From NCBI RefSeq assembly GCF_964340395.1, contig NC_135549.1, forward strand, positions 14,995,342-15,059,341: a DNA stretch of 64,000 nt, written 5' to 3'. Positions 10,701-50,000 of this stretch are shown here, piece after piece. How positions within the stretch are numbered: position 1 is the stretch's first letter; every line of letters starts with the position of its first letter. Source of the DNA: Glandiceps talaboti. Taxonomy: Eukaryota > Hemichordata > Enteropneusta > Spengelidae. The translations under genes and the position numbers were made by a program. The notes under the pieces were generated by a model. That model was given only the letters and a program-made list of their open reading frames with translations, searched no databases and had not been told where the DNA came from.

Positions 10701-13700
10701 ATTATGTCAGTGATGGTAATCTCAGGGTGACATTCGTAAAAGTTTATCAAAATTTTGTCTTTCCTCAGATTGTAACACTTTCATACGAAATATTGATGTG
10801 AATGGTACATATTGTACACGACTACTTGTACATATTCCTTGAGTACATAAACACACAGTCACTATTTAGAATTAAGACTCCCTTATATAGTCTGTGTTTC
10901 ATTCTATTTTATAGTTTTAGACTTTGTTTCTGAATTTCAAGGTATACTATGGTAATGAGTATTTATAAATGTGTTGATTTGTAGGGATGGTACCCACCAG
11001 GCAATGCACATCACGGTAATGCTGGAATGGGTGGAGAACACCACCAAGAGGTGGCAGCAGCAGCCCCTCAGATTGTGGTACAGCCACCAGAACAAACACA
11101 GGCCAACTTAGAAAGAGCACTAGAAAGTGAGATGAAGACACAAATAGAGAAAGATTTGGAGAAAGGCATAGCCGACATGACTTTGGAAAATATAGAGGAT
11201 ACAAGTGAAGGAGATTCCATGGACCAGGAGGGACTTGTTAAGGGTCAACAAATACCAACTAACAGTACTGAAACCGATAAACAAAAACAGGGGTAAGTAT
11301 TTGTGGTAACTGATAAATAAAAGCAGGGTGTGTGTGTATCTTTGAAACCGATAAACAAAAACCAGATTACAAATCTTTGGAAAGTAATAAACAAAAACAG
11401 GGGTGTGTATCTATGGAATCCAATAAACAAAGATGGGAATGTATCCATGGAAACTAATAAACAAAACACGTGGATGTATCTATGGAAACTGATAAAGGGA
11501 TATGTATCTAAGGAAACCAATAAACAAAACAGGTGTAGATCTATGGCAACCGATAAACAAAAACAGGGATTTGTATCTATGGAAACTGATAACCAAAAAC
11601 AGATTGTGAAATTTGTTTTGTCTAAAAAAATAGACAAACGTTGACCAGGCCATGGTTGTAGCCATTTCATACATATTTTTACCAAAATTCCATTGATCAT
11701 ACCAGAGTTGCGATAAAATTGTATGAACATCTTCATTTCCATAATTTCGACTTCACTCTGAAGCTAGTAGTACTTGCCATGCAGTTTTGTCATCTCATGA
11801 TGTTGTGTAGTGTCAAAGGTCAGACAATGACTGGCATATAACCAACTTATGTAAATGACTAGAACATATCAATCAGATTTCTGATTAGAAATTAGTTCAC
11901 ACATTTGTCTCCATTTAGCGAGATGAAATAACATGACACAGACTCAGAGTATTCATTCTCTACTAGTCAATGACAAAAAACTAGTTATATAACTGGAACA
12001 ATCCAAATATTACAATATTTTGGCACATCAGCTCAGATTTTTATTGATTTTTATTTCATGGCTATGTGATGGGTGTAGCTGTATATCTGTATTAGCTGAA
12101 ATCAAGTAAACTTTGATCTTGATGATTTCCCACACTCTACTTTTCAGTGCTGAACACATGAGCTCGGAGACCAGTAGTACAACCAGTAGTAGTAGCAATG
12201 GCAATGACAGGGGCACACACACTGCCTGGGCTGATCAAGTAGCCCAACAACAACAACACCAACAGCCACCACTCTTGCCAATGCAAACACCTCCACAAAG
12301 CCCAGTGGTAAGTATACCAATGCAAACACCTCCACAAAGCCCAGTGGTAAGTTACCAATGCAAACACCCCTATAAAGCCCAGTGGTAATTACTGTTATGC
12401 AAACACCTCCACAAAGCCCAGTGGTAAGTATACCAATGCAAACACCCCTATAAAGCCCAGTGGTAAGTACTGTTATGCAAACACCTCCACAAAGCCCAGT
12501 GGTAAGTATACCAATGCAAACACCCCTACAAAGCCCAGTGGTAAGTATAGCAATGCAAACACCTTCAGAAAGCCCAGTGGTAAGCACTTTTATGCAAACA
12601 CCTCCAGAAAGCCCAGTGTATGGTAAGTATACCCATACAATCACCTCCACAAAGCCCAGTGGTAAGTACTGCTATGTGAACATGTCAAGACTCTCTCCTC
12701 TGACTGCAACAAAATTTGTCCAATCCTGGTTGTTGCATCCTTGTGAATTATGGACATGGCTGTTCTCAGTCAAATAAACAACTTGATAAAGAAGCCATTG
12801 TAAGTGTAAGGAAATATTGAAAACAAGTTTACAATTGTTGGCAAAAACTAATGAAACCAGAATTGTACTGAATCACCTTATCTAAAGTTTGGGCAGGTCT
12901 TTGAATGTTCCAAACCAGTAGGTTCTTGTATCAAACTATGAAATATCAAAAGGAAGTTACCACAAAGTTAGTAAATCACATTCATTAGATGAAATATTTA
13001 TGTGGATATCCTTGTTCTTTCAGAGTGCCTCCCAGACCAGTTCAGTCTCGTCAACACCGAGTTCTGCAAACTCCTCCACTTCCAATATTCCGTCCCTCAT
13101 GTCACAACCTGTTCCCTTTTGTATGGTAGTGAGTGTGCCCAAGTTACCACGTGTTGCACCAGAAGTGTTGAGAATAGTCCATCATCGTCACCAAGAAGGG
13201 TTGATGATTCCACAAGTCTACCAGGTTCTTACTTCTGTAAGTATCTCACACAAGTTACATGTAGTAATGTCCATTGGTTATTGACAGTGCATACTACATG
13301 ATGTAAGTTCACTCACACAAGCAAGCAAGCACGCACGCACACACACAGATGCATGCAGACACACAGACACACACACACACACACATATACATACACACAC
13401 ACCACATATTTCATGAGTTTATTTTAGTATATTGCAAATATATTTGTATCAGTTATTTGTAAGAAAACATTGGTTGTCTAACCAGTTTCAATTTTAATTA
13501 TTTCATTGATAAAAACAGCTGAATTCAAAGAAAAGTGAAACAGCTGAATTCAAAGAAAAGTGATGATTTCCTTTGTTTCATGGGCAAAATTGAAACGTTC
13601 AATATCAGTAAAAACAGCAGTCTGACCCAAGTGGTATGCAAAGTCAGACACTTAATCTTTTTTTTTTTTTTTTTTTTTGGCGTTTGTGTCTCTGTTATTC

Positions 13701-14190
13701 ATAAACAATAAATAAATCCTAAAAGTATGTGTCTGTAAATATCAAGAAGTTGAAATATTAGGTATGACTCCCATTTATTTTGCATCTGTGACGCCAAATG
13801 ATCCAAATAAGAATGATCAGTGAGTTTTTTGAATTTGAAATTTGCCAAGATTGCCAAGTTGTTGTCATTTATTTGTTTCAAAGCAGACATAGAGTGCAAA
13901 ATGTCGCCATCAATGACAATGTAATGAGACTGGATTGCTGTAAATTTGTGCCTGGTTGGGAGTACGATCACCTTACGTGGTGGGAACCCAGCTAATTATT
14001 AACAAGTCACCTGAAGGGGTCACTTCATTGACCAAACATCATAAATCATGTACAACTGAACACTCAGTAGACCTGTGCAGGTGTTTCTAAAATACAATAT
14101 TTGTCACTTTATGAATAGTTTTAGCAAAATGTAAAATAAATAAGAAGGTGTAGATGGAAGCATTCAGAATGCATTACAACTCCCCCCCCA

Positions 14191-14222
<32 letters not shown>

Positions 14223-17200
14223 AAAAACAAACAAAAAAACCGAACAAACCAAAAAACAAAAACAAAACCCCCAAATAACTACAAAAACAACAACACAAAA
14301 TAGCAGTAAGTATATAGTTCCATACTCACGCTTGAGGAAATTAAGAAAATTGAATCCAGAATGATCATACTAGCAAGGTTTGAATGTTATCAATTTTTGA
14401 AAGCTAACAAGAACCTAGTTGGTTGTCTGTGCAGAATTTAGAAAGATTAGGGTCTTTGAAACATGTGAAAATTGTACAAATTGCATCTTATTGATATATT
14501 ATTGAGTTGTATGACTTGCTACCTTTTCAGTACATTGCATTCTCCCTGTCAAATCTTACAGTGTTGTCATTTTTTTTCCATGTTTCTGTGATCTCCAGAT
14601 AAATAATCTAGTTTATGAAATCATATCGAAATTTGTCATAGATATCAGAATGTCTGTCGTACAATATGTTAAAAACATGGGACTGTGAACATATTTTATT
14701 TTGGTGCTTGAAACGTTTGGTGGAATGACATTTGAGGATGTGTAAGGGTGCAATTAATTTGGTGAACTGTGCAAGGAGAAATTCAACAACAGCTGAATAT
14801 AGAAGCACGTGTCAACTCTGGACAGATTAATGGCTTTTTAACAGCCAGTGAAACAGGTCCATGTCTTTCTCTCCACTTTTGAATATGTCGCCATCGGTTG
14901 TGAAGTAAGTGAGCTAATTTGCATATTAATGTACATGAAGTATGTTAGTGGAGGTTATTTTGTGTGTATACAGCTAAAATAAACCCATCATAGAATCGGA
15001 TATATTAGGGATGATGTCATAGATTTTATAGCCAATCAAAATTAGCGTTAATATTCCTCTTGAAACTCAAAACATTGGTGTGTGTGATTGCTTTAAGTAA
15101 TAAATACATTTAAGGTGTATATGAAAAAGTCTCATGCAAGGCTACCTAGACGTTTCATTCTCTCTCTGAAGTGACTACAGTTATCAACAGACAGCAATTA
15201 ACGGAATGGGATGGGTACATAAAAAATTAAAGTTGTAGATAACGACAAACTGAGAAAAGGAAGCAGACTTGAAATTAACTGTACAAAAAAATTAAGCTCA
15301 TAACAAGTCCTAAACTTGTGAGTGTGACACCAAATGACAAGAAGGAAGTAAGGTGATTTATTGACGGGAGAGCTTTGCTTGGTAATAGACACTGGGGGAC
15401 TGTTTGGTTACCATGGAGATGAAATGTCTGGATCAGTGATGCATAGAATGTGGCAGTTACTTTTCATTCAGTTAGGGGAATATTAAAACTAACAGCTGCA
15501 GTCAAATATGATTTACAGTCATATTAGGGGCAACTAGGTAGAGCTGAACACCCCCCCCCCCCCCATTTGATAGCTTTCAGCAATCCCAAAATTTTGTAGA
15601 GTCTGTCAGTACTTACTAGAGATCATCACCACCCCTCCATTGTGATGTTTGATGTTTCATTATGACCCATCTAACTCCATGGTGATTATCACCTCCCCTC
15701 TAACTTGACAGTTTATCCCCCCCCCCCCTCCATTATACTTCACCGTGGCAACAATCAACCCAAGCACAAAATACAAATACAGTATGTGTTGTGTAGTAAT
15801 CGTTTAGAATAAACGTACCTCAGTTGTAAGCTTTCAGAATTTAAGTAAAAAGTACATTTTTAGGAGATTACTCTTCTGTTGTGCAAGTCTAAAAACCTTG
15901 GCTATTAAAGTCATTTGTGGTTTATGTTTTTTGTTTTTTTTAAACTCTGGTATGCATGATTTAGCTGACTAATCCTATTGTATAAAATTGGAATGGAGAG
16001 AGTTTGTATTGTGTTTGAAAGTGAAAGGATGACTAGATCTCTATGTGATAATGCATATATAATAGTGATATTTCTGACCATATGAAAAGCAGATGGCATG
16101 CCATAAAAAATGATGGGTCCCCAGTTCAGAATTAGATAAGTGACAAGGGATGGAGGAATTGCCTAGAGAGTCTGGCCCCAGACTAACACCATGCTTCATT
16201 ATGTAATGCCATTAAAGTAATACTCGTAAAATATCAACCCAATAATAAGTCCACTGCCTCGGAGGTGTCGTAATCTTAAATGCTGTTATTTGAAGTGTTG
16301 CAACCAAAGTAACTATATAAACTATCTTTGACTATAATTTAAACAATGCAAAGGATTGACTTTTATGCGTACAATACAGAGAAAGCAATCGGGTTAGAAG
16401 ACATCAGGTCATAAAATTGTTGTAAAGAATCTCAAAGAATACATTTAATAGTACTTTTTTTTCTGTTTCTTGTTCCACGCCATAAAAATGATGCAGAAAA
16501 TGTCAAAATGGAAGATTCAGCACACTTTGTAGTTGCTTGGTAAAGATATGAATATCGGTATTTTTTGAAAGTTGTATATTATGTTCTGTGGATTTGGTTG
16601 ATTTCTTCATCCATCAGAGATCAATGTTTTGCTAAAGGGGATGATAAATTAAATTTTCATTGGTTCTCTAGTCAGTTTACTTAACTTTGAAAATAAAACT
16701 ATATTAACCAGTGTGTGAAACTACAGTGTGCCATTTTCATATGACTTCTCCTTTCTGTTACCAGTATTGTGAAATCTTGGAAATCAAAGTAGAAAATAGG
16801 TAAAAATCCTTGATAGTTTAAAGAATATTTTATTGGTCAGTTTGTAGACGATCAAAGATTATTGGGCCATTGACAGAATATTGGTCAATTCATAGACAGT
16901 TGGTGGTTTCCCTTGTTATGGATGGAATTCAAGACAATTGGTGGTTTCCTTAGTCATGGATGGAATATAGGTCAATTCATGGACAACCGGACACTTTAAT
17001 CCTACCACTGTGGACAGTTAAACGTAGACGTTCTAAGTCTTTTGTCAGGGGTTTTGATGTTCTTAGTCTTTCGTCAGGGGTTTTCCAGCAATGCAATAGG
17101 TAAATGATAATACAATACTAGATATGATGCAATTGTATTTTTCAACATGACATGAAACGAATGATGATCAACTTAGCGATGTGTTATTGTTACGACTTAC

Positions 17201-20200
17201 ACCTGTTATCTTGTGTCACTTTCAGGGAGAAATCAAAATTCCGTGTTCACTAGAAGACGAGACAAGTCGTGAGCTTCCATCTTCCGCCTTACTATTCCGA
17301 CTTATCCGACAGTATGCATATGGAATACTATTCAGTTTACAACACCTTAACATGAGGAGGAAGAGGAGTGCCAAATGTAGGTACCTTCATCAATAAGTCT
17401 TTTTTCTGAATAACAGGCTCTGAAAAAGGACTTGTGTTGTGGCCACAGGCTTAGTTGTTGTGAACATAGTTTTCCTAACCCCAAACCTGTCTGGTATAGG
17501 TATTGGAGAATTCCAAAACTTGACCACACATCGATAACGTTGGAGTGGAAAATGATCATTTCTGGTCAAAATTATCAACTTGATATAATGGGATGGGGTT
17601 GGGGTGAACTTTGCTAATTCTGGAAGATATTTTTTGTACGATTTGTTTGTGTGTGCAAAACTAGCACTGAATGCTAAAAATTCTGTTTTCATATTGTGTA
17701 TAGCTATAGCAGATAGGAGAAAAAAATTTGTTACACTCTGCAAACCAAGGTAAAGTCTCATAGTCAAAAACTGTGAAATAGTTCTGTATTGCTGCAGTTC
17801 TATGCAAGCAATAGGGAACTTGCAAACCCGCCATGTTGAATGTTGCATCATGGGAGATGTGATAATAAATACAAATGAATTAGCATTGTAAACAGTAATG
17901 TTACATTGTTTGTTACCACAAATAGTCAATTCATAGTCACTCTAACCATTGTGGCAGGTTTATTTTATCGGTAGCTCCAGATAAGATATTACGAAAACCA
18001 CAGATAAACCCACAGTCCCTTTCATCTGAGCATGCTCAGTCTGGATTGCAAGTTCCCTATTACAGAGTGTGATATTACCTTACCTTGCTATCTATCTTTC
18101 CGTCAGTAATAAAATCCAAGAGGCAAATTATCATCAAAGAGTGGTGTGTACGTAAAGACAGCTCAATCCAGAAACCTGACTTGGTTGAAGCCATCTCTCT
18201 TCCCTGGCCTATACCACCATGTAGACAGTTGTGGACTGGCAGAACTCTTCAAGACAGAAACATCCGTACTCGTGCCTTCCTTTCCTGTATGTTGAGTGAT
18301 ACACCTGGTATGATGAAAAATTCCTATGTGCCAAGACATGCTATAATATTATGTACAGTGTTAAGGTAAGATTTCCTATGTGCCAAGACATGCTATAATA
18401 TTATATACAGTGTTAATGTAAGATTTCCTATGTGCCAAGACATGCTATAATATTATGTACAGTGTTAAGGTAAGATTACCTTATGTGCCAAAACATGCTA
18501 TAATATTATATACAGTGTTAATGTAAGATTTCCTATGTGCCAAGACATGCTATAATATTATGTACAGTGTTAAGATAAGATTACCTATGTGCCAAGACAT
18601 GCTATCATATTATGTACAGTGTTAAGGTAAGATTTTCTATGTGCCAAGACATGCTATAATATTTTGTACAGTGTTAATGTAAGATTTCCTATGTGTCAAG
18701 ACATGCTATAATATTATGTACAGTGTTAAGATAAGATTACCTATGTGCCAAGACATGTTATAATATTATGTACAGTGTTAAGGTAAGATTACCTATGTGC
18801 CAAGACATGTTATAATATTATGTACAGTGTTAAGGTAAGATTTCCTATGTGCCAAGACATGCTATAATATTATGTACAGTGTAAAGGTAAGATTTCATGT
18901 GTTAGATGCCTTCGTTTTACCAATCTGTAGTGAAATGATCAAGTCATGCGAAAAATGCAAGTCTGCATCTTTAGAGACCATTGAAATAGAATAAATGTAA
19001 AGCTGTGAAATTCCAGCTTCATAAATTCATAGCTGTCTGTTTATGTATTGGATGAAAACGTTTCAAATGTCTTCATAGCATCATCCCATACTCACAGTCT
19101 AAGAATTGAAATTACAAATCCAGTCAGATAGTGAAAGTAAATGGATTTAGTAGGGTTATTCTACGTAGTAGAGGAAAAATCTTTGCCTAAATGTATGCTA
19201 CGACAAATGAATAAAAAATTATGACAAAAAGAGAAGATTAAAACACAAATGTAAAGATTTAGTGTCAAACTTTCATCAAATATTGATTATGGCTAATGTA
19301 ATGGTGGGTGTAAATATTGATTGGCGAGATTGCCATAACAGACTAATTGATTGGTTGAGAGATTTCCACAAGAGACGACTTGATTGGTTGAGATTTTCAC
19401 AAGAGACTAATTGGTTAAGATTTTCACAAGAGACTAATTGATTGCTTGAGAGATTTTCACAAGAGACTAATTGATTGGTTGAGAGAATTTCACAACAGAC
19501 TTTATTGATTGGTTGAGAGATTATATTATATCATTAAAAAAATAAAATGATTGTAACAACTAAGTTTGTGTATTTGATGTAGGTATATGCTGCAATCAAA
19601 GTACCCAGTGTTACGTCGTCATGAGTGCGATGCATTCTTGGCCCAGAGTGTCAGCCCAATGTTACATGATCCAAACGCATTGCAAGAACTACAGGTATGT
19701 TTCAGCTACTTGGTATAAGTATTCACATATACATCTGCACTACAATGTAATGGACAATTGTTATATATCAGTTTATGAAGGTTGATTTTGTTTTTTAAAA
19801 AAGTGACAAAAATTATTTCACAAATGACGAACATAAGTTACCATAATTCCATAACTTGCTGTTTTTAGATTTCTAAGAAATTATACTAGTCTAAATTTCA
19901 TAATCATTTTTAACCACAACACTTTATCTACCAATGTCCACATCATCTTCGCTGAATATTGCTGTTTCAGGTTCCCCACATGTAGGCAATATACTGCTCC
20001 TGTTTCAGGTTCTCCATACTTAATCTTTGTTGAGTTGCTCGTGTTTCATTTCCCCTTCCATATCACTGGCAATATTGGTCATGTTTCAAGTTCCCCTCAT
20101 GTCGTCTATATCTGTATTGTTTCTGTTTCATGTTCCCATATCATCTTTGCAAGTATTACCTGAGTTTCAGGATCCCCACATTTATCTCTGGTAATGTCTA

Positions 20201-22236
20201 CTTTTGCGATTTCTACTGACGTGAGTGTAGCACATTAGTTTTACAAGAAATAAAATAATGATAATGTTAATTCTGTTCAACATATTATTGGTATTTAATA
20301 TAATTGTTTCTGTTTCATGTTTTCCACATGTCCCCTTTGCATGTGTTACCTGAGTTTCAGGTTCTCCACATTTATCTTTGGTAATATTAATCCTTTTCCA
20401 TGTTTCCTTCATGTAATACATGTTGATGTTCCAGTCCCAGTTTAGGTTCTCCTAATGTTGCTCTTGTTTCAGATTCTTCACATATCTTTGCTGATATTAC
20501 CCCTGTTTCAGGTTCCCCACATCTAATAGTTGCTGATATTACCCCTGTTTCAGGTTCCCCACATGTACTAGCTGCTGATATTGCCCCTGTTTCAGGTTCC
20601 CCACATCTAATAGTTGCTGATATTACCCTTGTTTCAGGTTCCCCACATATTGTAAATGTTGGTTTTCTGTTTCAGGTTCCCTTCATATCATCTTTGATAA
20701 TGTTGCTACTGTGTTAAATTCTTCACATATCTTTGTTGATATTGCCCCTGTTTTGAGGTTCACAAGATATATTTGTTGTTCCTGTTTCAGGTTCCCCATA
20801 TCTACATGTATTAGTTGGTTGATATTGCCACTGTTTCAGGTTCCCCACTTATACTATATGGTGATATTATCCTGTTTCAGGTTCCCCATATAACAGCAAG
20901 AGGTATTCAGTTATCAGCCATGTTTATGCGTGGTGTAGAAGCAGCCTTGGTAGCCAACGACTCATGTGGTCAGCCAGTGCCATGGAATGTATGCTGTCCC
21001 TGGCTCTTCTTTGATGGCAAACTTTACCAGTATAAATTATACAAAGCAACACAGAGCAAGTCATTAAAGGACATGTGTGATGGCCAGGTAAACTGCCTCT
21101 TGTCGCTTTTCATTGCAACAATTCTAATAATATTGGTCTCTAAGTTGATGGGCTACTGACATCAGTCAACCTGGGTGCTTAGTGACCAGTGTTAATCCCC
21201 CAAGTACAATCACCTATGCCATTGCCATCACCTTGTACATGATGTTTGCAGTCTATGCCTAAACAAAGCCATCTAGTAGCATTTCCTAAAATGGTATGTC
21301 TTTATACACAAGGGTAAAGTGAAGGCTAGATCTGATTTTATGCCTCTACACAGGCTTTAGACCTACAGCTGTCAGTGAAATTACCTAGGCAGACTTCAAA
21401 TAATGGGTTACTGTCAAGGATTGTATATAATAAACTCATGCTCAGTGCTACACAGGATAAAAGGAAGAAGAATATTTAAGAATGATATTTATGGTGTGGT
21501 ATTTTACAATAAAAGTAAGGCTAGGAAATTCCCAACAACTTGGGGTTTCTGGACTGTGTCAAAATGAAGGGTGAAAACACCTACCAAACTGTTGTCATGG
21601 TGACAACATGAATGACACTAAAGTATCACGTTGTCTTTCTCCCATAGATGGACCAAGTTGGGAAAGTGGAACGGATGCGTCAAGTGATAACAGAGGGTAT
21701 CTTAGACAACCTAGTATATGCTAAGCCTACACTGCCTAAGATGATGAACAGTGGTATGTATGGCTATCCACCCATGTATCCAAACTATAGACCAGCTGGT
21801 ACTGCCACTGTGCCACCAAACAGAAGACATATGGGAGGTACTACTTGTCTTGCTGTCCTCTCTTTTCTCTCATAAGACAGAAATGTATCACCTTGGACTG
21901 GAGTTTGTATTTCCTTGATTATTACAAGAGTTTGTACCTCTCTCACAAACTTCACACAGTTCATGAACAAGGCATATATCACAAGTTATCAGAAACTTGA
22001 CTATTTATAGATTTGATGTAGTTGGTTGTAACGTGTGACAGAGATCCTAACTATATATCAAAATGTTTTGTATATATGTGTGTATACATGCATGTGTATA
22101 TATGTACATCTTGCTTTGTTTATGTGATATGCTGTCTGCATTAGCTTGTGTTTGACCACTGCACTACTATAACTCTATCCTCCATGAGTAATAGCACTGG
22201 AATATCTGTAGACTTGCTGTTCGCAGTTGCTTTCTC

Positions 22237-22327
<91 letters not shown>

Positions 22328-22388
22328 CAATGTCTATAATGTATGTATGTATGTATGTATGTATGTATCTATATCTATGTCTGTCTGT

Positions 22389-22419
<31 letters not shown>

Positions 22420-24718: not shown

Positions 24719-25071
24719 ACTGTGAACTCTTGAAAACGAATGTAAAAAAACACAGCCCTGAACAGTAGGAGAACAAGGAAACTTTCTTAGATCTGTAGAT
24801 ATCCTTGGTCAGTAGTGGTAGATCAAAGCCAGTTCAGGTCTGATGGGCTTTCCCAACATTTATAACCAGTCACAAGAGGAGCTTTTTGTAACACATGCAC
24901 TGCCATTTTCAGTACATCAACAAACAACTTTGTAGCAGGTGTTTCATTACATAGAACATCAACCAGACAACACACAAACAAACAAACAAACAAACAAACA
25001 AACACACACACACACATTTACATAGATGCAAACACAAAGATGCACACACACATATATACAAATCACACATG

Positions 25072-25072
25072 C

Positions 25073-25124
<52 letters not shown>

Positions 25125-31060: not shown

Positions 31061-31162
31061 AAGCATTGGAGAGACCAATAATGCAGTTCTGTGTATGAAT
31101 AGTACTAAGGTTGTTTCTTGACGCTGTGTCACGTGATTGCTTTTATAGCCCTGCCAATACCT

Positions 31163-32122: not shown

Positions 32123-32208
<86 letters not shown>

Positions 32209-35200: not shown

Positions 35201-38200
35201 TCTACACCTACCTGAGACAACTATGAATCACTGTCTTGGCTTTATCTACTATCATCTCAGTCTTCCAATCCTTGTGTTTGAGTACTCTCAGTCTATACAC
35301 CATACTGTAGATGAACTTTCTATCCATTTCATAGATGTCAGCTACTCCTTGCCAATCTTTGTAATCCAGACACAATCTCAACATGACAGTATGGCTGTAG
35401 TGAGAGGGTAGGTTTTGGAGTACCAAACTAATGCAGTGCCTACTGTATGGTACACTCTGTGGTCCCATTCTAGACAACTCTGGAAGGCTGATTTCAAGTT
35501 CACTGTCAGACAAGTCATCGCTCTGTCAAAGTATTGTAAAATGGTACACTTCTTTTACTTTTAGGCTGCTATTGAGTCATTGGAAAGTTTTGCACTGTTG
35601 GGGTGTTAAAATACTCAACCAGCCAACCAATGTGAAGACTCTAGAGAAGGCTTATGCTGTAGGTTTTTGCTCATATTCCAATAGCAGATTCTGTTGCCTG
35701 TGTGCAGCATGTGAGAAAGCATACCCATGATACAGCATTAGTTTGTAATTGGGTTCAATAGATCAGGACGACATCACAAAATTTGCCAAATCGATGTCTT
35801 TACTCAGTTGATAGAACATTATGACTGGAATCTAGTGTTTTATGCACTAGCCTCATTCCTTTTCCAAAACTTTTAAAAAACCCTTGTAAAGTAAATATTA
35901 TACTGCGGCAAACATGAGAAGTAGACATACCAGAGTGTCGTCATCCATCAAGTCATCCATTGGATTGATACTGAGACCACCTGTTGTAATGACCAATGGT
36001 AAGCCTGGTAACTGAGTAGGTATAAGGACATCTTTACCAAGGAACTGTCCACCCTTCCTCCCTGGGTGATGGTGGTGGGTTTGTATATTGCCTGACATGC
36101 CACCCCTGCCTCCTCCAATACTCTCTAGTCCAAGCTAAAAGGTATAAGGAATCATTCACAATGCGATGAGGTATGGAATGGGAAGTGTGAGTGGGGTGGG
36201 TGGGCTTTGAGTAATGAAACGGATGGCAGACAAGTATGAAAGTTACTTTAAAGGAGACTTTCAAAAGGAAGAATGTTGAACTTGCAGATTAGCCATGCAT
36301 AAGAACACATGAATGCCTCCCCCAAAAGACACACTAGTGCACATAAAGTAACAGACACAAGTGTCCATGTATACACACAGACACATAGACAGACACATGA
36401 ACACAGACACACACAGACACACTGAAAGACACACACACATAAATAGTAATTGTCATACCTGTCCATGATCTGCTCTTCCCCACACCCACGTGTGACCAGC
36501 GATATCAATGATAGCAGAAAACTCTACTCCAGCTGCCACTGCTATGACTGGTTTTTCTGAGAAATGTTGTACTAGAGTTGGTACAAACTGGAAAAACAAA
36601 ATTAATTTGAGTTAAATCTATCCATACACTTTCTGTTTTGTGTCTACGTCTGATGACTGAAGTCTAAAAAAAGTATCGTAATTGTATGGAGTGGTGATGA
36701 CTGACACCCTACAAGTGCTACATATAGTGAGCTGTGATGAATAAAGATCTGTTCCACTCTATAAGTCCCTACCCCAAGTTCACCAAATAGTTTGCATTCA
36801 CTCAAGCTATCACACTCACCTGTTCCAATATGTAAGTCCCTACCTCAAGTTGACCAAATAGCTTGTGTTCACTCAAGCTATCATACTCACCTGTTCCACT
36901 CTGTAAGTCCCTACCCCAAGTTGACCAAATAGTTTGCATTCACTCAAGCTATCACACTCACCTGTTCCACTCTGTAAGTCCCTACTCCAAGTTGACCAAA
37001 TAGTTTGCATTCACTCAAGCTATCATACTCACCTGTTCCACTCTGTAAGTTCCTACCCCAAGTTGACCAAATAGTTTGCATTCACTCAAGCTATCATACT
37101 CACTTGTTCCACTCTGTAAGTCCCTACCCCAAGTTCACCAAATTGTTCGCGTTCCCTCAAGCTATCATACTCACTTGTTCCACTCTGTAAGTCCCTACCC
37201 CAAGTTGACCAAATAGTTTGCATTCACTCAAACTATCACACTCACCTGTCCCACTCTGTAAGTCCCTACCCCAAGTTGACCAAATAGTTTGTATTCACTC
37301 AAGCTATCACACTCACCTGTTCCACTCTGTAAGTCCCTACCCCAAGTTGACCAGATAGCTTGAGTTCACTCAAGCTATCACACTCACCTGTTCCACTCTG
37401 TAAGTCCCTACCCCAAGTTCACCAAATAGTTTGCGTTCACTCAAGCTATCACACTCACCTGTTCCACTCTGTAAGTCCCTACCCCAAGTTGACCAAATTG
37501 TTTGCATTCACTCAAGCTATCATACTCACCTGTTCCACTCTGTAAGTCCCTACCCCAAGTTGACCAAATAGCTTGCATTCCCTCAAGCTATCATACTCAC
37601 CTGTTCCACTCTGTAAGTCCCTACCCCAAGCTGACCAAATAGTTTGCATTCACTCAAGCTATCATACTCACCTGTTCCACTCTGTAAGTCCCTACCCCAA
37701 GTTGACCAAATAGTTTGCATTCACTCAAGCTATCATACTCACCTGTTTCACTCTGTAAGTCCCTACCCCAAGTTGACCAAATAGTTTGCATTCACTCAAG
37801 CTATCATACTCACCTGTTCCACTCTGTAAGTCCCTACCCCAAGTTGACCAAATAGTTTGCATTCACTCAAGCTATCATACTCACCTGTTTCACTCTGTAA
37901 GTCCCTACCCCAAGTTGACCAAATAGTTTGCATTCACTCAAGCTATCATACTCACCTGTTCCACTCTGTAAGTCCCTACCCCAAGTTGACCAAATAGCTT
38001 GCATTCCCTCAAGCTATCATACTCACCTGTTCCACTCTGTAAGTCCCTACCCCAAGTTGACCAAATAGCTTGCATTTCCTCAAGCTATCATACTCACCTG
38101 TTCCACTCTGTAAGTCCCTACCCCAAGTTGACCAAATAGTTTGCATTCACTCAAGCTATCACACTCACCTGTTCCACTCTGTAAGTCCCTACCCCAAGTT

Positions 38201-41200
38201 GACCAAATTGTCCGCGTTCACTCAAGCTATCATACTCACCTGTTCCACTCTGTAAGTCCCTACCCCAAGTTGACCAAATTGTCCGCGTTCACTCAAGCTA
38301 TCATACTCACCTGTTCCACTCTGTAAGTCCCTACCCCAAGTTGACCAAATTGTCCGCGTTCACTCAAGCTATCATACTCACCTGTTCCACTCTGTAAGTC
38401 CCTACCCCAAGTTGACCAAATAGTTTGCCTTCACTCAAGCTATCACACTCACCTGTTCCACTCTGTAAGTCCCTACCCCAAGTTGACCAAATTGTCCGCG
38501 TTCACTCAAGCTATCATACTCACCTGTTCCACTCTGTAAGTCCCTACCCCAAGCTGACCAAATAGTTTGCATTCACTCAAGCTATCACACTCACCTGTTC
38601 CACTCTGTAAGTCCCTACCCCAAGTTGACCAAATAGTTTGCATTCACTCAAGCTATCATACTCACCTGTTCCACTCTGTAAGTCCCTACCCCAAGCTATC
38701 ATACTCACCTGTTCCACTCTGTAAGTCCCTACCCCAAGTTGACCAAATAGTTTGCATTCACTCAAGCTATCACACTCACCTGTCCCACTCTGTAAGTCCC
38801 TACCTCAAGTTGACCAAATAGTTTGCATTCACTCAAGCTATCACACTCACCTGTTCCACTCTGTAAGTCCCTACCCCAAGTTGACCAAATAGTTTGCATT
38901 CACTCAAGCTATCATACTCACCTGTTCCACTCTGTAAGTCCCTACCCCAAGTTGACCAAATAGTTTGTATTCACTCAAGCTATCACACTCACCTGTTCCA
39001 CTCTGTAAGTCCCTACCCCAAGTTGACCAAATAGTTTGCATTCACTCAAGCTATCATACTCACCTGTTCCACTCTGTAAGTCCCTACCCCAAGCTGACCA
39101 AATAGTTTGCATTCACTCAAGCTATCATACTCACCTGTTCCACTCTGTAAGTCCCTACCCCAAGTTGACCAAATAGTTTGTATTCACTCAAGCTATCACA
39201 CTCACCTGTTCCACTCTGTAAGTCCCTACCCCAAGTTGACCACAGTCATTCTTACCAATAGAAAACATCTCACCAGCCACTGTCACAATCAAGGTATGGT
39301 TACTTCCACATGCAACCTGTCCTCAAATACAGAGAGAGACGGTAATAATCAATACATGATCTGTACAGGAGATTAATATCACATTATCATATAGTGACTG
39401 AAACATTTTTCATCAGCTGGCTATATGTGAAAAAGAAACACTTTTTCCTCTCTAAAGATATTTTAGTTTATGCACCTTACTCAACTGCATTAAAAGTATT
39501 TGCTTCAAGGAACAAGTTCGAGATATTTTGGTTTTTTAATCCTCTTGATTTCCATACCTTATAAGTTACAGTTGGTATAGGCCTTCATTATTTTACAGAA
39601 AGGATTGTGTCGGGGGTATCCCTGACTGTTGTATTTCACAATGATCGAAAGGTTACATAACTAAACTAGCGGAATAATATGTAGTAGGAGTATGTTTTGT
39701 ACAGTCATATATTATATGTACTATTTTGTATCTTGCATTTCAGAAATTACACTCCTTGAAACACTGACAAATTTTCCAAATGAATTCCTTTTTATAACGA
39801 TATCTTTAACTAATTTGTTGAGGCACAAACTGCATATGCAGCAGTTTTCTTGACAAAGTTTACATTATTTTGTACATTCTTATAGGATACTATGTTTGCT
39901 TGATCCCCCACCTGTTTAATTCTGTTGATAATGTTATTATCAATGGGTCTTGGTGTAAGATGAACTGTTTCATAAGCTTGTGGTTTCACTGGTGAATGAC
40001 TACCACGACGTCTTCTACTTTGGAGTAGTTTTTGTCTGAGAGAGGCTGGATGTGAGCCCCACACATAGATCAGTTGAGGACCAGTTGTAACAGCAACCTG
40101 AAAACCAACAAGGACAGTCCTTAATAATGTCTTTAGATGAGTCCAGATATAGCTGAGAACTAGCCTTACAAATGACTTCTCTTCGTACTCATTATTTATT
40201 CAAATATGAATTTCTTTATGTTTATGATTGACAGATTTTGATGACACCTAGATTTTTTATGTATACTGTGATATGTAATGTTTGCGTCAGTGTTGTAGGA
40301 CACACTTTTAACATTCTGAACATTACTGACTAAATATCTTCATGGAATCCTTTAATTCAACCAAATGCTTTGTTAACGGCAGTAAACTGTCTAAATCGAC
40401 CTTGAGTGGGACAAAATTTCATGGTCAGTTTTTAGAGCGAGTCAATTTAGTCAGGGTGGGCGTGGCAGATCAAGACAATCATATAACAATGGCATGGTTC
40501 TCCAGACTACCCAGATGAATTAACGAACACCACTTTTGTGTTCTTACAGTTTTGCTTAGACATTTTCACACACACAGGTAAATTGATTCAGAGACATGAA
40601 AAATAAAATCAGTTTTTACATGAATATAAATGCATTTTAACTGATTATCCTACTTTAGCTAGAGAAAGTAAACAACTTGTATTGACTATTGTTTGTCTTG
40701 TCAACGTAAATTTATCAACTTACATTGTGGAACAATCCACTTGAAACCATGACTACTTTATAATCTTTCAGTGCCATGACAACAGTTGGTAAGGACTGCT
40801 TCTCTATTTCTCCATCACCAAGCTGACCAAATCTATTGCATCCAAAGGTCATGACCTGACCTTCTAAGGTCAAGACAACTGAGTGACAGCATCCAGCACT
40901 GATTTGGGTCACTTGAGAGTCAGCAAGTGCTTGTACAATCTTAGGTATGGGCTGATCATAGGGGTCACCATGACCGAGTTGTCCATGTACACCCCATCCC
41001 CAGCTCCAAACTCTACACAATAATAGACAGGGAACTTTGTATAAGAAATTGTGAATTTTAACATTGATATTTGAAAAGCAATATTTCGCCACTTTTTAAA
41101 GTATCCTTCTGGTGTGATTATGACCAGTCTTTGACACCATACAGTAGATAATAGTGGATGTAAATTTCATACCAAAAGTAAATTAAACGATTTATGCATG

Positions 41201-44200
41201 CATTGATGGTCACCAATTCAATGTACCTGCAATAGAATTTTACTGGCTGCCTAGGCACGTAAAAAAGTAATAACGAAAATAACATTGATATCTTGGTTGA
41301 CACATGCATTACAATAAGTGCATATGAGAATAAGTCAACCTTCAGGTTCTTTCTAGCATAAGATAAAATGCTATTACAGGGACTGAGAATTATGATATTA
41401 AATGTTATGCATGACACATAGTTTTAACCATCTAATTTCTCTGATGATCGTTGAATTCTTAAAGAGGAGAAAACAAGTGACAAATTGTTCATACAAGATT
41501 TACCTGTGGTCTTGGCACAATGCCAACGAAAATAACATTTGATATCTTGGTTGACACATGCATTACAATAAGTGCATATGAGAATAAGTCAACCTTGGGG
41601 TACTTTCTAGCATAAGATAAAATACTATTACAGGGACTGAGAATTATGATTTTAAATGTTATGTATGACACATAATTTTAACCATCTAATTTATCTGATA
41701 GTCGTTGAATTCTTAAAGAGGAGAAAACAAGGAACAAATTGTTCATGCAAGATTTACCTGTGGTCTTGGCACAATGCCAATGAATGGTACTGTCCACATG
41801 CTATGGCTGCAATTTTATGGTTTGATAGTTCAGTGATTTCTACTGGTCTAGTCTGGGTGTGACTGCTTCCTATACCAACTTGACCATACTTGGATGAACC
41901 CCAGCCATACACCTAGGAGATAGACATTGAAGTCATCAGTCAAGGGTGATTTGATGTTTTTGCTGTTTCAAAGTATCAGGTAAGCATGATGAAGAAATAA
42001 ACATTATTTTTGCCCTAAATGTAGACAACTTAGTTTTAGTCACCAAATCTATTTAACTCACAGTTAGCCAGTCTGTCTCTGATCATTCACTGTGTCCGTC
42101 TGTTTACCTGTCTGTCTGTTTGTCCATCTGTCTGTACTCTTTTCTGCTTCACTGACACTGCTATTTTTAGTTTTAGAGTAATTGGTGATTCTACTATCAT
42201 GGAAAACACTAAATCAACATGCAATGGTGTGAGTTTCATTTATTTTATTATTGTCATTTTTTATGAAAACACTAAAACTGTGGTAGCTTGTAGCCCGTTG
42301 ATCATTTTGGAATGTATGCCACAGAGGTGTGATGTTTATCAGCATTACCCGGTACATGCAATAGTAAAACAATACTAATCACAAACAATGTGTACCTATG
42401 GATGGCAATACTGCTAATGTTCTTGTTTTGCACATAAACCAGTCTTCACATACAGAATGGAATGGCTTATGTCTCATTCTACACAAAAAAATTTATTCTC
42501 GGAAAATTCTAGGAAACATGTAGTTCTGTTTAAACTCACCCCTTGTTGGCAGAGAGCTAGAGTGTGTTCCCTTCCACATGCAACTGATAATACTTTGATC
42601 CTGTGCATATGTAATGTCTCTACTCTGAATGGAGTAACTTTACCCTCATCTACAATGATTTCACCATGGCCCAGTCTGTGAAGGAATCAATGACAACTTT
42701 TAGTGCATTTTCAAATAGCGGCTAGTTTCCCCTTGCACTCTCTATCAAAATAAAGTGTGCCTCACATATCTACAATGGCACTCTGCAAAATTATTGAAGT
42801 GCAAAAATAAATATGTCCGGACTATTTTAGATTTTGTGAAAATGGTTCATTCACGTGACATCAAAAGGTGAAATGTTTACCTTCCACTGTGTGCTTTACC
42901 CCAGGTGTAGAGATCACCATGGCAGACAGCTGCGGCATGGTACTGACCACAACTCAGTAAAGTACTTTGTTTAGCAACACGACTGGCTCTTCTTGGACTA
43001 CTCAGTGGTGATTGTGGTGGACTGGTTAGTGATGTGTCTTCCTGGTATCCTGCAAATGATCTATACATACACCAGATAGTTAGTATTCAATTTAGTCAAA
43101 AGTCAAAATATCAAAAATCAATCATGAAATAGTCAAAATGTGTCAAAAACAGGCAAAATGATGTACCAATGCAAGACACCTGTGTTTCTATGCAAATGTT
43201 GGTATCTGATAATCATAAAATTGAACGGAGTTCTCATAAAATCACATGTAGTAATTTTATTTCATAGTCACATTCAGTCTACAGACTTGGCTATCTGGCT
43301 TGGGAATCTCTTTCGCCAGAATGTCTGCTGTGCCAATGTGCTGATCCAGATAGCCAAGTTTCTGGGCTAGATAACAGACTTAGCCTGACATTATAAGGTG
43401 ACCGTTCAACTTTCATTCATCTGTTACCATGACATTCACAGCTTTATTTTGATATAGTGATAGTAACTCACCCAGCATGAATTCTCCTGATCACCTGTCT
43501 CTTGTAATTTAGTACCAGTAAAACCTCCAGGAAGAATTCAACCAGGGTTTCTAATCTCAGTTGGTTTATATCCTGTCATACAAAAAGATACAAGACAGCC
43601 ATCAAAGTAAATATCTCTAACCACAGATGTTCTATGTAATGTAATCAGATGGCATGATCAGATGGACATATTTCTGACTACTATTAGCGCCCTCTATTGA
43701 CATAAGCAGGCAGTGATGTAACAGGATGGAAACAATTCATTCACTACATATAGTAATAGCTCTACAGATTTCTAGCTATGAGAGAGAAATTTGAATCTGA
43801 GATATACACAACCCTAGTAAGACTGCAAAGGTGAAAACTTACATGTACATGAGATCCTGGTTCACTGGAGGATGTGCTGAATGAACTGAATGTTGATGTT
43901 ATTGAGCAGAGTGATGAGGATCTGAGGATAAAGACACAACATTCAAACTCAAGTAGTAAAGATATTTATGATGAAGTAACTTTATCTACAGTACTTACTA
44001 TCACATGAAACAATTGATTTTAGTATGAATATTACACAGTGTGTTAGTTTTAGTTAATTTGTATTTTTATGGCATCAAGTATATAACATTATCAAATCAA
44101 AGTATACTGTTCTTTAAGAACCTGATATACATACATTGATTGTTCTGTACTTTTCAAAACAGATTGAGGTGCTGATATGACAAACAATATATATATATAT

Positions 44201-44444
44201 ATATTGTTTGTCATATCAGTACCTCAATTATGTATTCCATTTTTCTAGTGATAACATTGTTGTTTAGGCATGATATATGTGTAGCTGAACAGTTGGTGTC
44301 CATGCATGAAGCAATGTTTAGGCATACAAAAATGTTGGTGCATATGCTCACAAAAATGTGTACAAGTCCATTTTTATGACTGCTGGCACTGTAGTACCAC
44401 TATACACTTTATGTGTTAATTTTTTAAGTCCTACAGTTTTTGAC

Positions 44445-44519
<75 letters not shown>

Positions 44520-44532
44520 ACACATGCACGCA

Positions 44533-44563
<31 letters not shown>

Positions 44564-47009
44564 TTATGCATGTACACTTTGCCATGCTTATAACACTACT
44601 GAACCTCAGTTCAGTTGTGCTAATCAAAAACAATTTAACTTTGACATGAACAAAGTTACAAAGACTCATAAACCTCAATTTAATAAAAGGACCTTTGTAT
44701 TCAACAACTTTGGAGAAGCCAGGATGTGTCCAGTGACATATTAACCAAAGAGGAAAAACACAATATTCAATGCAAGTTAAATATAATCATCACCTTCTTC
44801 TACTTTGGATAGCTGCCTTCTGTAGGTGCATTTTCATACTTGGTCTGGAAGGATCAAACAATTCTGCAAGTCTTAGTACGGTCTCCACATCTAGTTCTCT
44901 CAGACAAGACTTCATGGCTGTTAGGTATTTGTTAGTGTACTCAGGCTGTAAGACAAGTTATGAATTGATAGGTCAGGAGAAGTGTAACAATATAGCCTGG
45001 ATGTAGAAAAGGAGCATGACATACATGTGTCATATGTCAACAAACACATTCACATGAAAATGACCTGCTAGTCACCCAGTTGGAATCATGGTAGAAGCTG
45101 ATACACAATTTTGACTCAAATTAATGGTGAGGTGTCTGTATTTCATTATGTTGATGAAATCTACATGATTTGAATGAAAGCTACATACTAGATGAAAACC
45201 TAACTTAAACAAGGAAATTCAATTTTTATTTGCTGGTAACATTTGAGGTAGATTGTCACTCTGTGCCTTTCATCTTTGGACTGAGAAAGACATACATTAC
45301 ACTCATACCTGTGCCAGGCTTGTTAATTTTTGCAGATACCACAACAATAACCTAATTGTAATATATCATTTACCTCATTCAGGAGATGATAGACCAAATC
45401 AGCTGATGTCAAACATTGCAACAACGTGCCTGTACTGGTTGCCATGGCAACAGAGAATTCCTGACTCATCGCCCTAGTAGTAGAGTCAATACCTAGTTGT
45501 AAGGTACCTTTACTGATGATGAGGTCAAGGGCATCACCTACATGACCACGACTCTGAAAGGAAAAATAATCGTAAAAGACTTGTTGTTCCAAGACACAAC
45601 TGTTTTCACAAATACCAAATAAAATTGACACAAGATTCTTGTTATAACTGTGGCTATGAATTGGACAATAAAAATCATCTCTAATGTACTTGAGGAGTGA
45701 GAACTGAGATGTCAGAATTGGTACGAGATAGGATCTTATACTTACCTTTGCTATGTCCATCAAAATTTCATACATTCCATGTTCTGCTAGTAAGTTTAAT
45801 GCCAGCAGTACATTGTAGTCAAAACTATCTGTCAAGAATTGTCTTTAAAAAAAGTAAGAAAGAGAAAATCAAATTAATTATTATGTTGTATATGTTTGGT
45901 ACTTCACAAAATCAAACCATCCAGTTCCTGAAATCATAGCACATTGACACACCTTATCAATACCTTACTGTAAATGTATAGATCATAATGTTGTCACTAT
46001 AGCATATAACTTTACTGTAACACATATAAACTGTGAAATGTCACATTATGCCACATCATATCACATCATACAAACAGTGCATTAATTTGCCCTGATTATT
46101 ATTTCTCTTCCAGCAAAACCTGTTGTTTTTTAACATAAGAAACTCCACAACAACTATTGATGAATGTGAATCAGCTACATAGACATTTCTAGGTGTCTCC
46201 CTTTACTCTCTACAATCTTGTCAGTACTTCAATAACACCAAAAAATGCACCATCTATAAACATAACAACACCAAGTGTACAAACCTGAAAGTCATTTCTA
46301 AATGTCTGTCTTTGCTCTCCACAATTTGTTGTATGTAACATTGTACGGCCAGGTTTGACAACTCTTTCCTTTCAGTGGGTAACAACTCAGCTGGTCTGTT
46401 TAACACAAGTCTTAGGTGGGTCAAGATCTCTTTCATTCTTCCATATTTGGCAAAACTGGATATTCTTGTCATGTTGTCACACTATGCAAGAATGAATGTA
46501 AATATGGAGTACTGTCAGTTTTACAACATATCAGTGGCAGTCAACAACAAGAAAGTCACTTTGTGGATAGCGATTATGATACATAGATACTCATTATATC
46601 CTAATAAAGTCACAGTGTATAAATTGAAAGGACATTTGTCTATATTAAACTGGTGTTCTGTATTTTTATGACACCACTGAACAAACCAGACTTTAATAAT
46701 TTGGTGTTTTGATCTTTCTGTGTCTGTCTCTGACAATATATGACCACAAAGTGTGATTGAAGCATAGCAATGTAAAGTTTGTCTCCTTCTTTTGAGTAGT
46801 CATTTATGTGACTCATACTTCATTAACTATGAAAACTTACAGTACTGCATTCCAAGATTGAAAACTATAATATTTACACATATACCTTGAAAGATTGAAG
46901 CGTTACATTCATTCATCTTTCAGAAAACTTTGAAAACAACATTACACAAATAAAATTTGAAGAATTCTGTGGAAAGTTCAAAATCTATGTAATTTTCATA
47001 AAATATTTA

Positions 47010-47061
<52 letters not shown>

Positions 47062-50000
47062 GTTGGGGGGGGGGAGTTGGGGGGTTCATGAAAAAAGTTT
47101 GAAAACATGTACATTAAGATTGACACATACCTTGGAAAGATTAAAGAGTTTCATGGCCTGGTTATATTCTCCTCTTGAAAGTCTCAGTTTAGCACCTGTT
47201 TCATACAATGTATTAACATCTAGACTCAACACAATACCAAGTTGATCAGCTAAGGAGCAATCACTATACTCAACTGCTAACTGAAGGAATAGCTTCTCTG
47301 GAGATACTCTACAAAAATCAGAATAGACTTAAAGAGGATTGTATAACATTTATGTAATAATTTACTGTAATATACAAATACTAACACTACCTCTAGTAAA
47401 ACCTATGAATTATACAGGAGATATTTTAACATAATTATCCTCATTATTACACACACTGTATACTAACATAAAGTAAACATGTACAAACCAATTTACATAC
47501 ACACAATCAAAAAAAGATACACACAAAACTCGTGAACAGCCAGACATCTTGGAAATAAACACAAAATGCACAGACACCTCTAAACTCAAAAACTCTGGCT
47601 TGTACTTGTAACTTCCCTAACTCTGATTCCCCACTCTTCTAAAATCGTTCACTCTGGTTATCCCACCCTTCTAAACTCATAATCTCTATGGCTATCCATT
47701 GCTTCTTACTTACTTACTCTGGCTACCCCATGCTTACTTACTCACTCTGGCTATCCCATGTTTCTAATTTCAAAAACTGGCTACTGCATATTTCTTAAAC
47801 TCTCTAACTCCTGCTGCACCATACTTCTAAACTCACAAACTTTGCCTACTCCATGCTTCATACCTTGGTCTACATTGATATACAGCAGCATCAGTTACTA
47901 CAATACAACCGTCTAACACCGTATCTTTCTGTGACTCTATATATTCAGCTGTGCTGCTAGCTAGGCCTCGTCTGCTTCCTCCATCACCCTCTGTCACTTT
48001 GTGTCGTTTCTGTCTGTCGGCTAAATACCGTGATGGAAATCTCTCTTTGTAGATTTCAAGTATGTTTTCATCATCTGGTATTGAAAACAACTGTACTACT
48101 GCATCCATGCTGGTTTCTTCATCAACAGTAGGAGATGAAGTCTCTGACATTTGGTTGGAGATGACACTCAGACATACCTAATGTTAGATTAATAAAAAAA
48201 AACAAAAAACAATCAATGAATAAATGAACAACACTTATAAAGTGCCACACTCCCAAACATTACATTCAATCATGCTGAATCCTCTCTGATCACAGTCTTG
48301 GACGAGTTTGTGGACAGCAAACAGATGTGCTGAAAATACATGTATGATTTTGCAGTCAAATGCTTCCAAACATTATCGTCTACTCTTTTTTAAGCCACTA
48401 AAATATTTCCTTGTTTTGAGTAAACTGCATCATACTTTAAAGTATGCATAATAAAATTAACTTCAACTCAACAAGCTGTCATCTAAAATGTGTACACATG
48501 TATTAGGTTCTTCTTTAGGTTTGTTTTAACGGCCTACTTTTGATTAGGATTCAAACCAAGGTATGAAAAACAGTTGTTTGGCAGAGCTGGAGAAAAAGTT
48601 GGGACAGAACAAATGAATGATCCTATGTAATACTTATAAAAATGACACAAAAGTGATGGAATTGGATTAACCATTGAAAATATCTCAAACTGGGTATTTT
48701 GAGACACTATGCACTATGTCTTACCTTGTCCATATGATTAATCACAGCAAACATGAGTCTATCAGTCAGAACTATATGATCACTGTCAGCTGGCACTTGA
48801 TACACGAATAATGGCAACCAATTATCAACACTGGCATCAAACACCTGCATAGGAGTGAACAATTATTGATGTATGAATGTTATTTCATGACCTCACCATA
48901 ATCATGACATTTAACATGTAACCTCGTGTAACTTAGCTTTTAGTTTTGTTGTATGACACGAGCACTCTCATTAAATTACAAAAACTCATATTTTGAAAAA
49001 AAAAGAAATGTACGCATTGATCCACATTACAAGAAAAATGAATTTGTCAATTACTAGATCTGTGATTTATTTGAATCAAAACTAAATACTGGAAAGATTC
49101 ATAAATATGAATACCGTTATCTGTTTTAAGACAACATGATGAGGATGATGATGATAATATTAATATAATGACAATGAGGACGAGGACAACAACGACGATG
49201 TTGAATCATCAGGTCAACAAATGAATATGGAGAATATACTGTAACCAATCCATATGCAGCTCAGTGTTCATTCTAGATCACAGGATCAGCACATATGTTT
49301 TATAAAAGACCCTAATAAATCTGATGAATGCGGCCACACAGCCACATCGAAAAATGGACTCGGTTGTTTGCATTCTTAACTTTATTTTACCCTTGACATC
49401 AGTTCTAAAGCTACAATGCTACAAACTGTGAACACAAACCTTGACATCAGTTCTAATGTTACAATGCTACAAACCGTGAACACATACCTTGACATCAGTT
49501 CTAATGTTACAATGCTACAAACTGTGAACACATACCTTGACATCAGTTCTAATGTTACAATGCTACAAACCGTGAACACATACCTTGACATCAGTTCTAA
49601 TGTTACAATGCTACAAACCGTGAACACATACCTTGACATCAGTTCTAATGTTACAATGCTACAAAAAGGTAAACACATACCTTGTAAATGCTAGTTTCTT
49701 TATCATGTGCTGCAACATAGTTTCTACCTTTAGCATGTTGTACATTCAGCCTTACATAGTTTGAAAACTGTTTGAAAGGTACTGGGGCAAAATCACGTCG
49801 GAACTCATCTGTAATATCAGACAGACAATAACCAAGATATTATTATCACATTGAATCCTATTTGAACTGTTTAATTAAAAGATAACCATATTTAGATAAA
49901 TCAGTTAGCTGATTTCAAACCCAATACAATAGTAGGCAGTATGCTATATTGTGTTTGAAATATTGTGTACTAGCTTACAGATAAACAGAAAATGAGGCAA

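What the first reader, a model, noticed from the sequence alone, without database searches (positions are those of the whole stretch)
11255..49690. Several independent minisatellites all straddle exon-intron boundaries of two genes
At least six arrays and one duplication, with unrelated units (about 37, 39, 53, 71, 91, 48 and 254 bp), each include or begin at a 5' splice site. The first unit is the end of the coding exon and the rest extend into the intron, so each true donor is followed by a row of decoy donors. One further array does the same with a 3' splice site. Ordinary intronic tandem repeats should fall at random along introns this long; this placement suggests a mechanism that targets or tolerates expansion at splice junctions. 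I recall, unverified, a report of amphioxus minisatellites repeating 5' exon-intron boundaries; if so, this would be a dense example of that class.
Basis: partly seen in the sequence, partly recalled or inferred. Interest (0 to 1): 0.92.

Follow-up and report, generated by a model that had tools for sequence, protein, structure and literature searches.

The report
Repeated splice donors in acorn-worm genes
In DNA that likely comes from an acorn worm, short tandem repeats copy the exon-intron boundary at eight of the 51 splice donors mapped in three neighbouring genes, leaving rows of decoy splice signals that the cell would have to ignore; such "mirage" repeats were known from amphioxus, so this would extend them to a second phylum.

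Summary
In exon models of three genes, 8 of 15 non-simple tandem arrays cover a splice donor and none covers an acceptor; a diverged 42-bp row leads up to one acceptor. A ninth (92 bp x 3.8) lies in LTA4H just outside the window. Random placement gives 1.2 donor hits (0 of 5000 trials reach 8) or 4.6 (P = 0.03), depending on the null. In each donor array the real donor comes first. Of 63 strong decoys one would keep the reading frame, and the LTA4H protein aligns without a gap across its junction, so the first donor is probably used.

The class is known: "mirages", reported in amphioxus. This genome looks like a hemichordate instead (mitochondrial ATA at isoleucine sites, candidate tRNA-Lys CUU, little or no AAA; 23 chromosome-size contigs). 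In 19 random 10-kb stretches 0 of 42 predicted donors lay in an array, so genome-wide enrichment is not shown; the window is rich or selected. I read it as microhomology-bounded duplication tolerated in introns; true targeting remains open.

The parts
3692..24718 (+). Gene 1, 14 exons modelled in window, FAM120-family-like (name recalled, from no call)
   Evidence: Open, phase-matched exons with GT/AG; predicted N-terminal exons upstream in L026/L027; no Pfam or PDB hit
11269..11602 (+). Donor array, ~36 bp x 9.6, old; real donor after 11292
   Evidence: TRF; 1 of 8 aligned decoys still donor-like
12278..12668 (+). Donor array, 39 bp x 9.9; real donor after 12307
   Evidence: TRF; 8 of 8 aligned decoys donor-like, one in frame
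18321..18896 (+). Donor array, 52 bp x 11.1; real donor after 18365; microhomology TTC
   Evidence: TRF; 8 of 10 aligned decoys donor-like; junction
19963..20891 (+). Acceptor row: 42-bp TRF core 20488-20648 with diverged copies on both sides; real acceptor before 20881 is the last copy
   Evidence: 15 matches, 0.04 expected
31161..54553 (-). Gene 2, 28 exons modelled plus 53489-53312 added late; WD40/RCC1-repeat protein; the most upstream exon (54553-54501) is uncertain
   Evidence: Exons; Pfam PF25390, PF00415; PDB RCC1-type hits
50487..50606 (-).
   Evidence: TRF, donor coverage
49391..49684 (-). Donor array, 48 bp x 6.1; real donor at 49681; microhomology CAAGG
41272..41784 (-). Donor duplication, 254 bp x 2; real donor at 41758; microhomology TT
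36749..39242 (-). Donor array, 71 bp, ~35 copies; real donor at 39206; unit matched nowhere else in the genome search
34761..35289 (-). Donor array, 91 bp x 5.9; real donor at 35212; microhomology AGAGTAC
46868..46908 (-). Possible fossil single copy of the donor region of 47131
   Evidence: local alignment score 39; frequency of such copies not above control
46181..46215 (-). Possible fossil single copy of the exon end before donor 46285
   Evidence: score 35; not above control
32035..32074 (-). Possible fossil single copy of the donor region of 32284
   Evidence: score 35; not above control
54891..63884 (+). Gene 3, leukotriene A4 hydrolase, 11 exons modelled in window, no donor array inside the window; mirage at L028:1451-1802 (C1:15060792-15061143)
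   Evidence: 487 bits to human LTA4H; L028 array

Best explanation
These are "mirage" minisatellites: tandem arrays whose unit spans or starts at a 5' splice site, likely born by small tandem duplications across the exon end and likely tolerated because the first donor is still the one used. Shown: unit structure; real donor first in each donor array (and real acceptor last); decoys mostly intact in the younger arrays but almost all unusable for the reading frame; 2-7 bp of microhomology at the four clean junctions; a 71-bp unit specific to its locus. Inferred: birth by microhomology-mediated duplication (template slippage or end joining), later growth by slippage or unequal exchange, neutral decay of old copies, and use of the first donor in the cell. 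Why exon ends exceed mid-intron sites here is not explained by tolerance alone.
For: 8 of 15 arrays on donors, 0 on acceptors by TRF span. 63 of 74 aligned decoys score as donors; 62 of those 63 would shift the frame or meet a stop. The LTA4H protein aligns without a gap across its mirage junction; at the 41758 junction two of three RCC1-repeat alignments to UVR8 are gap-free and one has a one-residue gap there. Microhomology AGAGTAC, CAAGG and TT and TTC. The 71-bp unit: 10 matches, all in its own array. An old array has lost its decoy donors: 1 of 8 left at 11292.
Against: Tolerance alone predicts arrays anywhere in introns, yet donors are in excess. No RNA data: use of the first donor is indirect. 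Microhomology was read at 4 of 7 junctions examined; at 12307, 39206 and LTA4H the junction is blurred or the last copy truncated, the 11292 and 50593 arrays were too old to read, and no null for microhomology length was run. The 71-bp array ends at the exon-derived edge of its last copy, which a simple duplication does not predict. Random genome sample: 0 of 42.
Confidence: 0.68

Rival explanations
1. Active targeting: a transcription- or splicing-coupled process (polymerase pausing, R-loops, breaks at 5' splice sites) makes exon ends hot spots for tandem duplication in the germ line.
For: Donor excess over random placement, 8 against 1.2 or 4.6; donor arrays 8 of 50 against acceptor rows 1 of 50 (counting the diverged row), Fisher P = 0.03; three neighbouring genes affected.
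Against: 0 of 42 predicted donors in 19 random stretches; per array, 0 of 40 random arrays carry a predicted exon end at score 22 or more, against 2 of 40 with a predicted exon start; donor/acceptor asymmetry is also expected from first-donor tolerance; no expression data.
Confidence: 0.3
2. Chance: ordinary intronic minisatellites that happen to lie on donors, in a window picked because it looked striking.
For: Unconstrained placement gives P = 0.03 only; the window was preselected; random stretches have a similar array density (40 in 190 kb, some of it N, against 16 in 64 kb) but no donor arrays; a first, flawed control showed no donor excess (9 of 50 donors against 22% of random intron anchors at score 34).
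Against: Constrained placement: P = 2e-4, 0 of 5000; a ninth case found blind next door; amphioxus genes show the same form.
Confidence: 0.15
3. Selected function: rows of decoy donors are kept to recruit U1 snRNP, for exon definition or protection from premature polyadenylation.
For: 34 of 35 decoys in the 71-bp array and 8 of 8 in the 39-bp array keep a donor score of 7 or more.
Against: Decoys decay in the old array (1 of 8 at 11292) and lose GT in 2 of 10 copies at 18365; exon-derived and intron-derived columns do not differ significantly in the 71-bp array (P = 0.45).
Confidence: 0.07
4. Assembly or gene-model artefact.
For: Copy numbers in tandem arrays can be mis-assembled; no RNA support; one gene 2 exon was missed at first and its most upstream exon is uncertain.
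Against: Copies of the 71-bp array carry many private variants; assembly is chromosome-scale; exon ends fit phase and homology.
Confidence: 0.03

Closest known systems
Amphioxus 'mirages' (Adh3, globins BflGb6 and BflGb9, PGBD5; PMC3087553 and PMC3902484, passages seen; the original Adh paper, doi 10.1093/nar/gkf386, is not held and was not read)
   Same: Tandem repeats spanning exon-intron boundaries, donor and acceptor forms, many copies with splice signals, gene product apparently unaffected.
   Different: Host is probably a hemichordate; 8 donor arrays among 51 donors of three adjacent genes; up to ~35 copies over 2.5 kb; units 21-254 bp.
[quoted passage not shown] potato RdRp, PMC4974935, abstract and passages seen)
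   Same: Tandem duplication that copies splice signals; the potato case also crosses an intron-exon boundary.
   Different: Here existing introns grow; no new intron or exon is seen in the protein models.
Ordinary intronic minisatellites
   Same: Unit sizes, copy numbers, divergence between copies.
   Different: 7 of the 15 arrays lie away from donors (one of them is the core of the acceptor row); the other 8 sit on donors.

Membership tests
Mirage minisatellites | Tandem unit spans an exon-intron boundary | tested here: met
   8 donor arrays, one more in L028; the 48-bp one holds only 4-5 exon bases
Mirage minisatellites | Many but not all copies carry splice signals | tested here: met
   63 of 74 aligned decoys score 7 or more
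Mirage minisatellites | Both 5' and 3' boundaries can be affected | tested here: met
   One acceptor row, 15 matches
Mirage minisatellites | Unit 10-72 or 150-160 bp (sizes given in PMC3087553; 60 and 108 bp in PMC3902484) | tested here: met
   21-91 bp for seven of eight; the 254-bp duplication is longer
Mirage minisatellites | Regular splicing is not disturbed | not testable with these tools
   No RNA; indirect support from frame and alignments
Mirage minisatellites | Length instability between haplotypes or somatic | not testable with these tools
   One haplotype only
Mirage minisatellites | Host is amphioxus (range of the reports seen; not part of the structural definition) | tested here: not met
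   ATA at isoleucine sites, AAA absent in 9 of 12 mt frames looked at, candidate tRNA-Lys CTT after COX2, 23 large contigs; criteria in PMC3121625 and PMC11175523. Inferred, not proved
Intron gain by tandem duplication | Duplicated exonic AGGT segment creates a new intron | tested here: not met
   Units cross existing donors; exon models show no added intron or exon
Dispersed repeat or transposon | Unit occurs at many places in the genome | tested here: not met
   71-bp unit: 10 matches, all in this array; the other units were not tested

The most novel reading that the evidence does not exclude
Invertebrate deuterostomes, amphioxus and hemichordates alike, share a mutational process that aims small tandem duplications at 5' splice sites, continually seeding rows of decoy donors that are raw material for new introns and exon extensions.
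Probability: 0.2. Interest if true: 0.85.

Novelty: new member of a known kind. Interest (0 to 1): 0.58.

Why it matters
If the hemichordate reading is right, boundary-copying minisatellites are no longer a lancelet curiosity, and one stretch of about 66 kb offers nine donor cases of different age in three genes. They are natural tests of how the spliceosome picks one donor out of up to 35 near-identical ones in a row, and of whether tandem duplication at exon ends feeds intron evolution.

Tried and rejected
Random intron anchors as a control for donor self-similarity: by that measure donors were not in excess (9 of 50 at score 34 or more, against 22% of anchors), but the anchors fall inside the boundary arrays themselves, so I replaced it by array placement and a masked control. 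With arrays masked, single diverged copies downstream of donors are 3 of 42 against 3.1% in control: not significant, so I do not count them. Lower divergence of exon-derived columns in the 71-bp array (18 of 1152 against 51 of 1120 cells) is not significant per column (P = 0.45). Boundary arrays having more copies than others: P = 0.07. GFP family as an amphioxus marker gave no match, but its control rang nowhere, so it says nothing. Protein search for gene 2 relatives gave one remote hit, of no use. Myosin exons were located (78 places) as an unbiased gene set, but their DNA could not be fetched. The ab initio exon finder is imperfect: 34 of its 46 window predictions overlapped a modelled exon in cross-validation, and 10 of the 12 others were decoy exons inside the 71-bp array; so 0 of 42 in random DNA has an upper 95% limit near 7% and its exons are predictions. 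An array-centred version gave donors 8 of 16 in the window (model trained on the window itself), 1 of 7 next door, and in random DNA 0 of 40 at score 22 (2 of 40 at score 18; acceptors 2 and 4 of 40). Paper searches for the class; no hemichordate case was seen, but most subscription papers are not held.

Dropped before counts: TRF rows that are microsatellites or overlap a better row (15 kept of 54 by hand; the automatic filter keeps 16, adding 8950-8991); predicted exons lying wholly inside an array (10 of 46 window, 1 of 14 neighbours, 1 of 43 random); decoys scoring under 7 (11 of 74) in the frame test.
Full report
Observation. Tandem Repeats Finder lists 54 rows in the window. I built exon models by reading the sequence and checking open frames, phase and GT/AG: gene 1 on the plus strand (3692-24718; FAM120-like by recalled resemblance, no Pfam or PDB hit), gene 2 on the minus strand (54553-31161; WD40/RCC1 repeats), gene 3 on the plus strand from 54891 (leukotriene A4 hydrolase, 487 bits to the human protein). 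Of 15 non-simple arrays, 8 cover a donor (three in gene 1, five in gene 2) and none an acceptor by TRF span. The acceptor case is a diverged row: 15 matches to one 19-mer between 19963 and 20891, expected 0.04, the real acceptor being the last.

Chance. Placing the 15 arrays at random in the three genes gives 4.6 donor hits on average (P = 0.03 for 8 or more); forbidding placements that swallow an exon or cover more than 80 exon bases gives 1.2 (0 of 5000 trials reach 8) (the run with 50 donors gave 4.5, P = 0.03, and 1.1, P = 2e-4). Donor arrays 8 of 50 against acceptor rows 1 of 50: Fisher P = 0.03. The window was chosen because it looked striking, so I looked elsewhere. In 40 kb next to it an exon finder trained on the window gave 13 usable exons, one with its donor in an array: an LTA4H exon at L028:1414-1490 followed by a 92-bp x 3.8 array. 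In 19 random 10-kb stretches (a twentieth contig was too short; some bases read N) the same finder gave 42 usable exons and 40 arrays, and no donor in an array. On the window itself, cross-validated, it found 5 of 36. So the rate elsewhere is lower (upper 95% limit about 7%; Fisher P = 0.02 against the window) and genome-wide enrichment is not shown.

Anatomy. In the eight window arrays, and in the LTA4H one, the real donor is the first copy; where I could measure it, the unit holds 4 to about 77 exon bases and the rest intron. I aligned 74 decoys in the window arrays; 63 score 7 or more on a donor matrix made from the 42 donors without arrays. The 71-bp array alone has 34 such decoys out of 35. 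Only 1 of the 63 strong decoys would give a longer, in-frame, stop-free exon (39-bp array, first decoy); the three LTA4H decoys all follow an in-frame stop. The alignment to an LTA4H structure (4gaa) runs without a gap across the L028 junction. At the 41758 junction the gene 2 protein aligns to UVR8 without a gap in two repeats and with a one-residue gap in a third. Use of the first donor is therefore likely, but no RNA was available.

Birth. Comparing exon edge, joint and the intron after the last copy shows shared bases at the joint: AGAGTAC at 35212, CAAGG at 49681, TT at 41758, TTC at 18365. At 12307, 39206 and LTA4H the joint is blurred or cut. This fits duplication by slippage or end joining at short homologies; no null was run. 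The 71-bp unit has no match outside its array. Arrays differ in age: TRF matches of 93-97% for the 48-, 52-, 71-, 91- and 254-bp units, 81% for 39 bp, 67-68% for 36 and 21 bp; the 36-bp array has 1 of 8 decoy donors left, which fits neutral decay.

Organism. The genome has 590 Mb. Of 31 contigs whose length I saw, 23 exceed 15 Mb and together make about 588 Mb, so there is no room for a 24th; 23 is the number given for two hemichordates (PMC11175523, passages). Mitochondrial DNA lies in one contig as copies 15,435 bp apart (the 4,000 bases compared are identical). Gene names other than COX1 are mine, by eye. AAA is absent from ND1, ND2, COX1, COX2, ATP6, COX3, ND3, ND4L and ND4; untrimmed ND5, CYTB and ND6 frames hold 2, 1 and 2; ATP8 was not looked at. 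ATA stands at sites that I recall as mostly isoleucine in COX1 and COX2. A candidate tRNA-Lys with CTT anticodon follows COX2 (its predicted fold is not a clean cloverleaf). PMC3121625 (passages) names tRNA-Lys CUU and ATA = Ile as marks of Ambulacraria and reports AAA lacking in Balanoglossus, though not in Saccoglossus. CYTB lies between ATP6 and COX3, which I could not match to a described order. I conclude: probably an acorn worm, not amphioxus.

What is known. PMC3087553 (passages) describes "mirages", tandem duplications of exon-intron boundaries, in amphioxus globins and Adh3, at both 5' and 3' boundaries, apparently without disturbing splicing (RT-PCR), with length differences between haplotypes, and proposes a model of intron gain from them. 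PMC3902484 (passage) adds PGBD5 and cites troponin C. The original Adh paper is not held. My searches showed no hemichordate case. I file the finding as a new member of the mirage class, probably in a new phylum.

Verdict. Structure: firm. Class: mirage, on the structural features that could be tested. Mechanism: duplication across exon ends, tolerated because the first donor works, is the reading I commit to; active targeting of donors is not excluded and is the more interesting case.

Noticed in passing
G000:C40 (L002-L006): Mitochondrial DNA appears as head-to-tail copies 15,435 bp apart in one contig, and CYTB lies between ATP6 and COX3.
   Followed up: partly
54553-54891: Gene 2 (as modelled, first exon uncertain) and LTA4H start back to back about 340 bp apart, which suggests a shared divergent promoter.
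   Followed up: no
33018-33951: 151-bp x 6.2 array in an intron of gene 2, next to a GGAC microsatellite and away from the exon edges; looks like a repeat-element piece (a genome search for it did not complete).
   Followed up: no
L028:2886-3090, 4005-4186, 7522-7830: Further minisatellites (30, 62, 82 bp) in or near the LTA4H 3' part that do not sit on a predicted exon edge.
   Followed up: partly
44160-44230: Near-perfect hairpin around an AT run in a gene 2 intron, seen by eye.
   Followed up: no
57640-57760 and 58190-58340: Two similar stretches in an LTA4H intron with a shared core around 'actgcagtgcaat', similar to a stretch in L028 near 3700 by eye; likely a dispersed repeat.
   Followed up: no
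36749: The 71-bp array ends at the exon-derived edge of its last copy and runs into unrelated intron, not into the expected intron start.
   Followed up: partly
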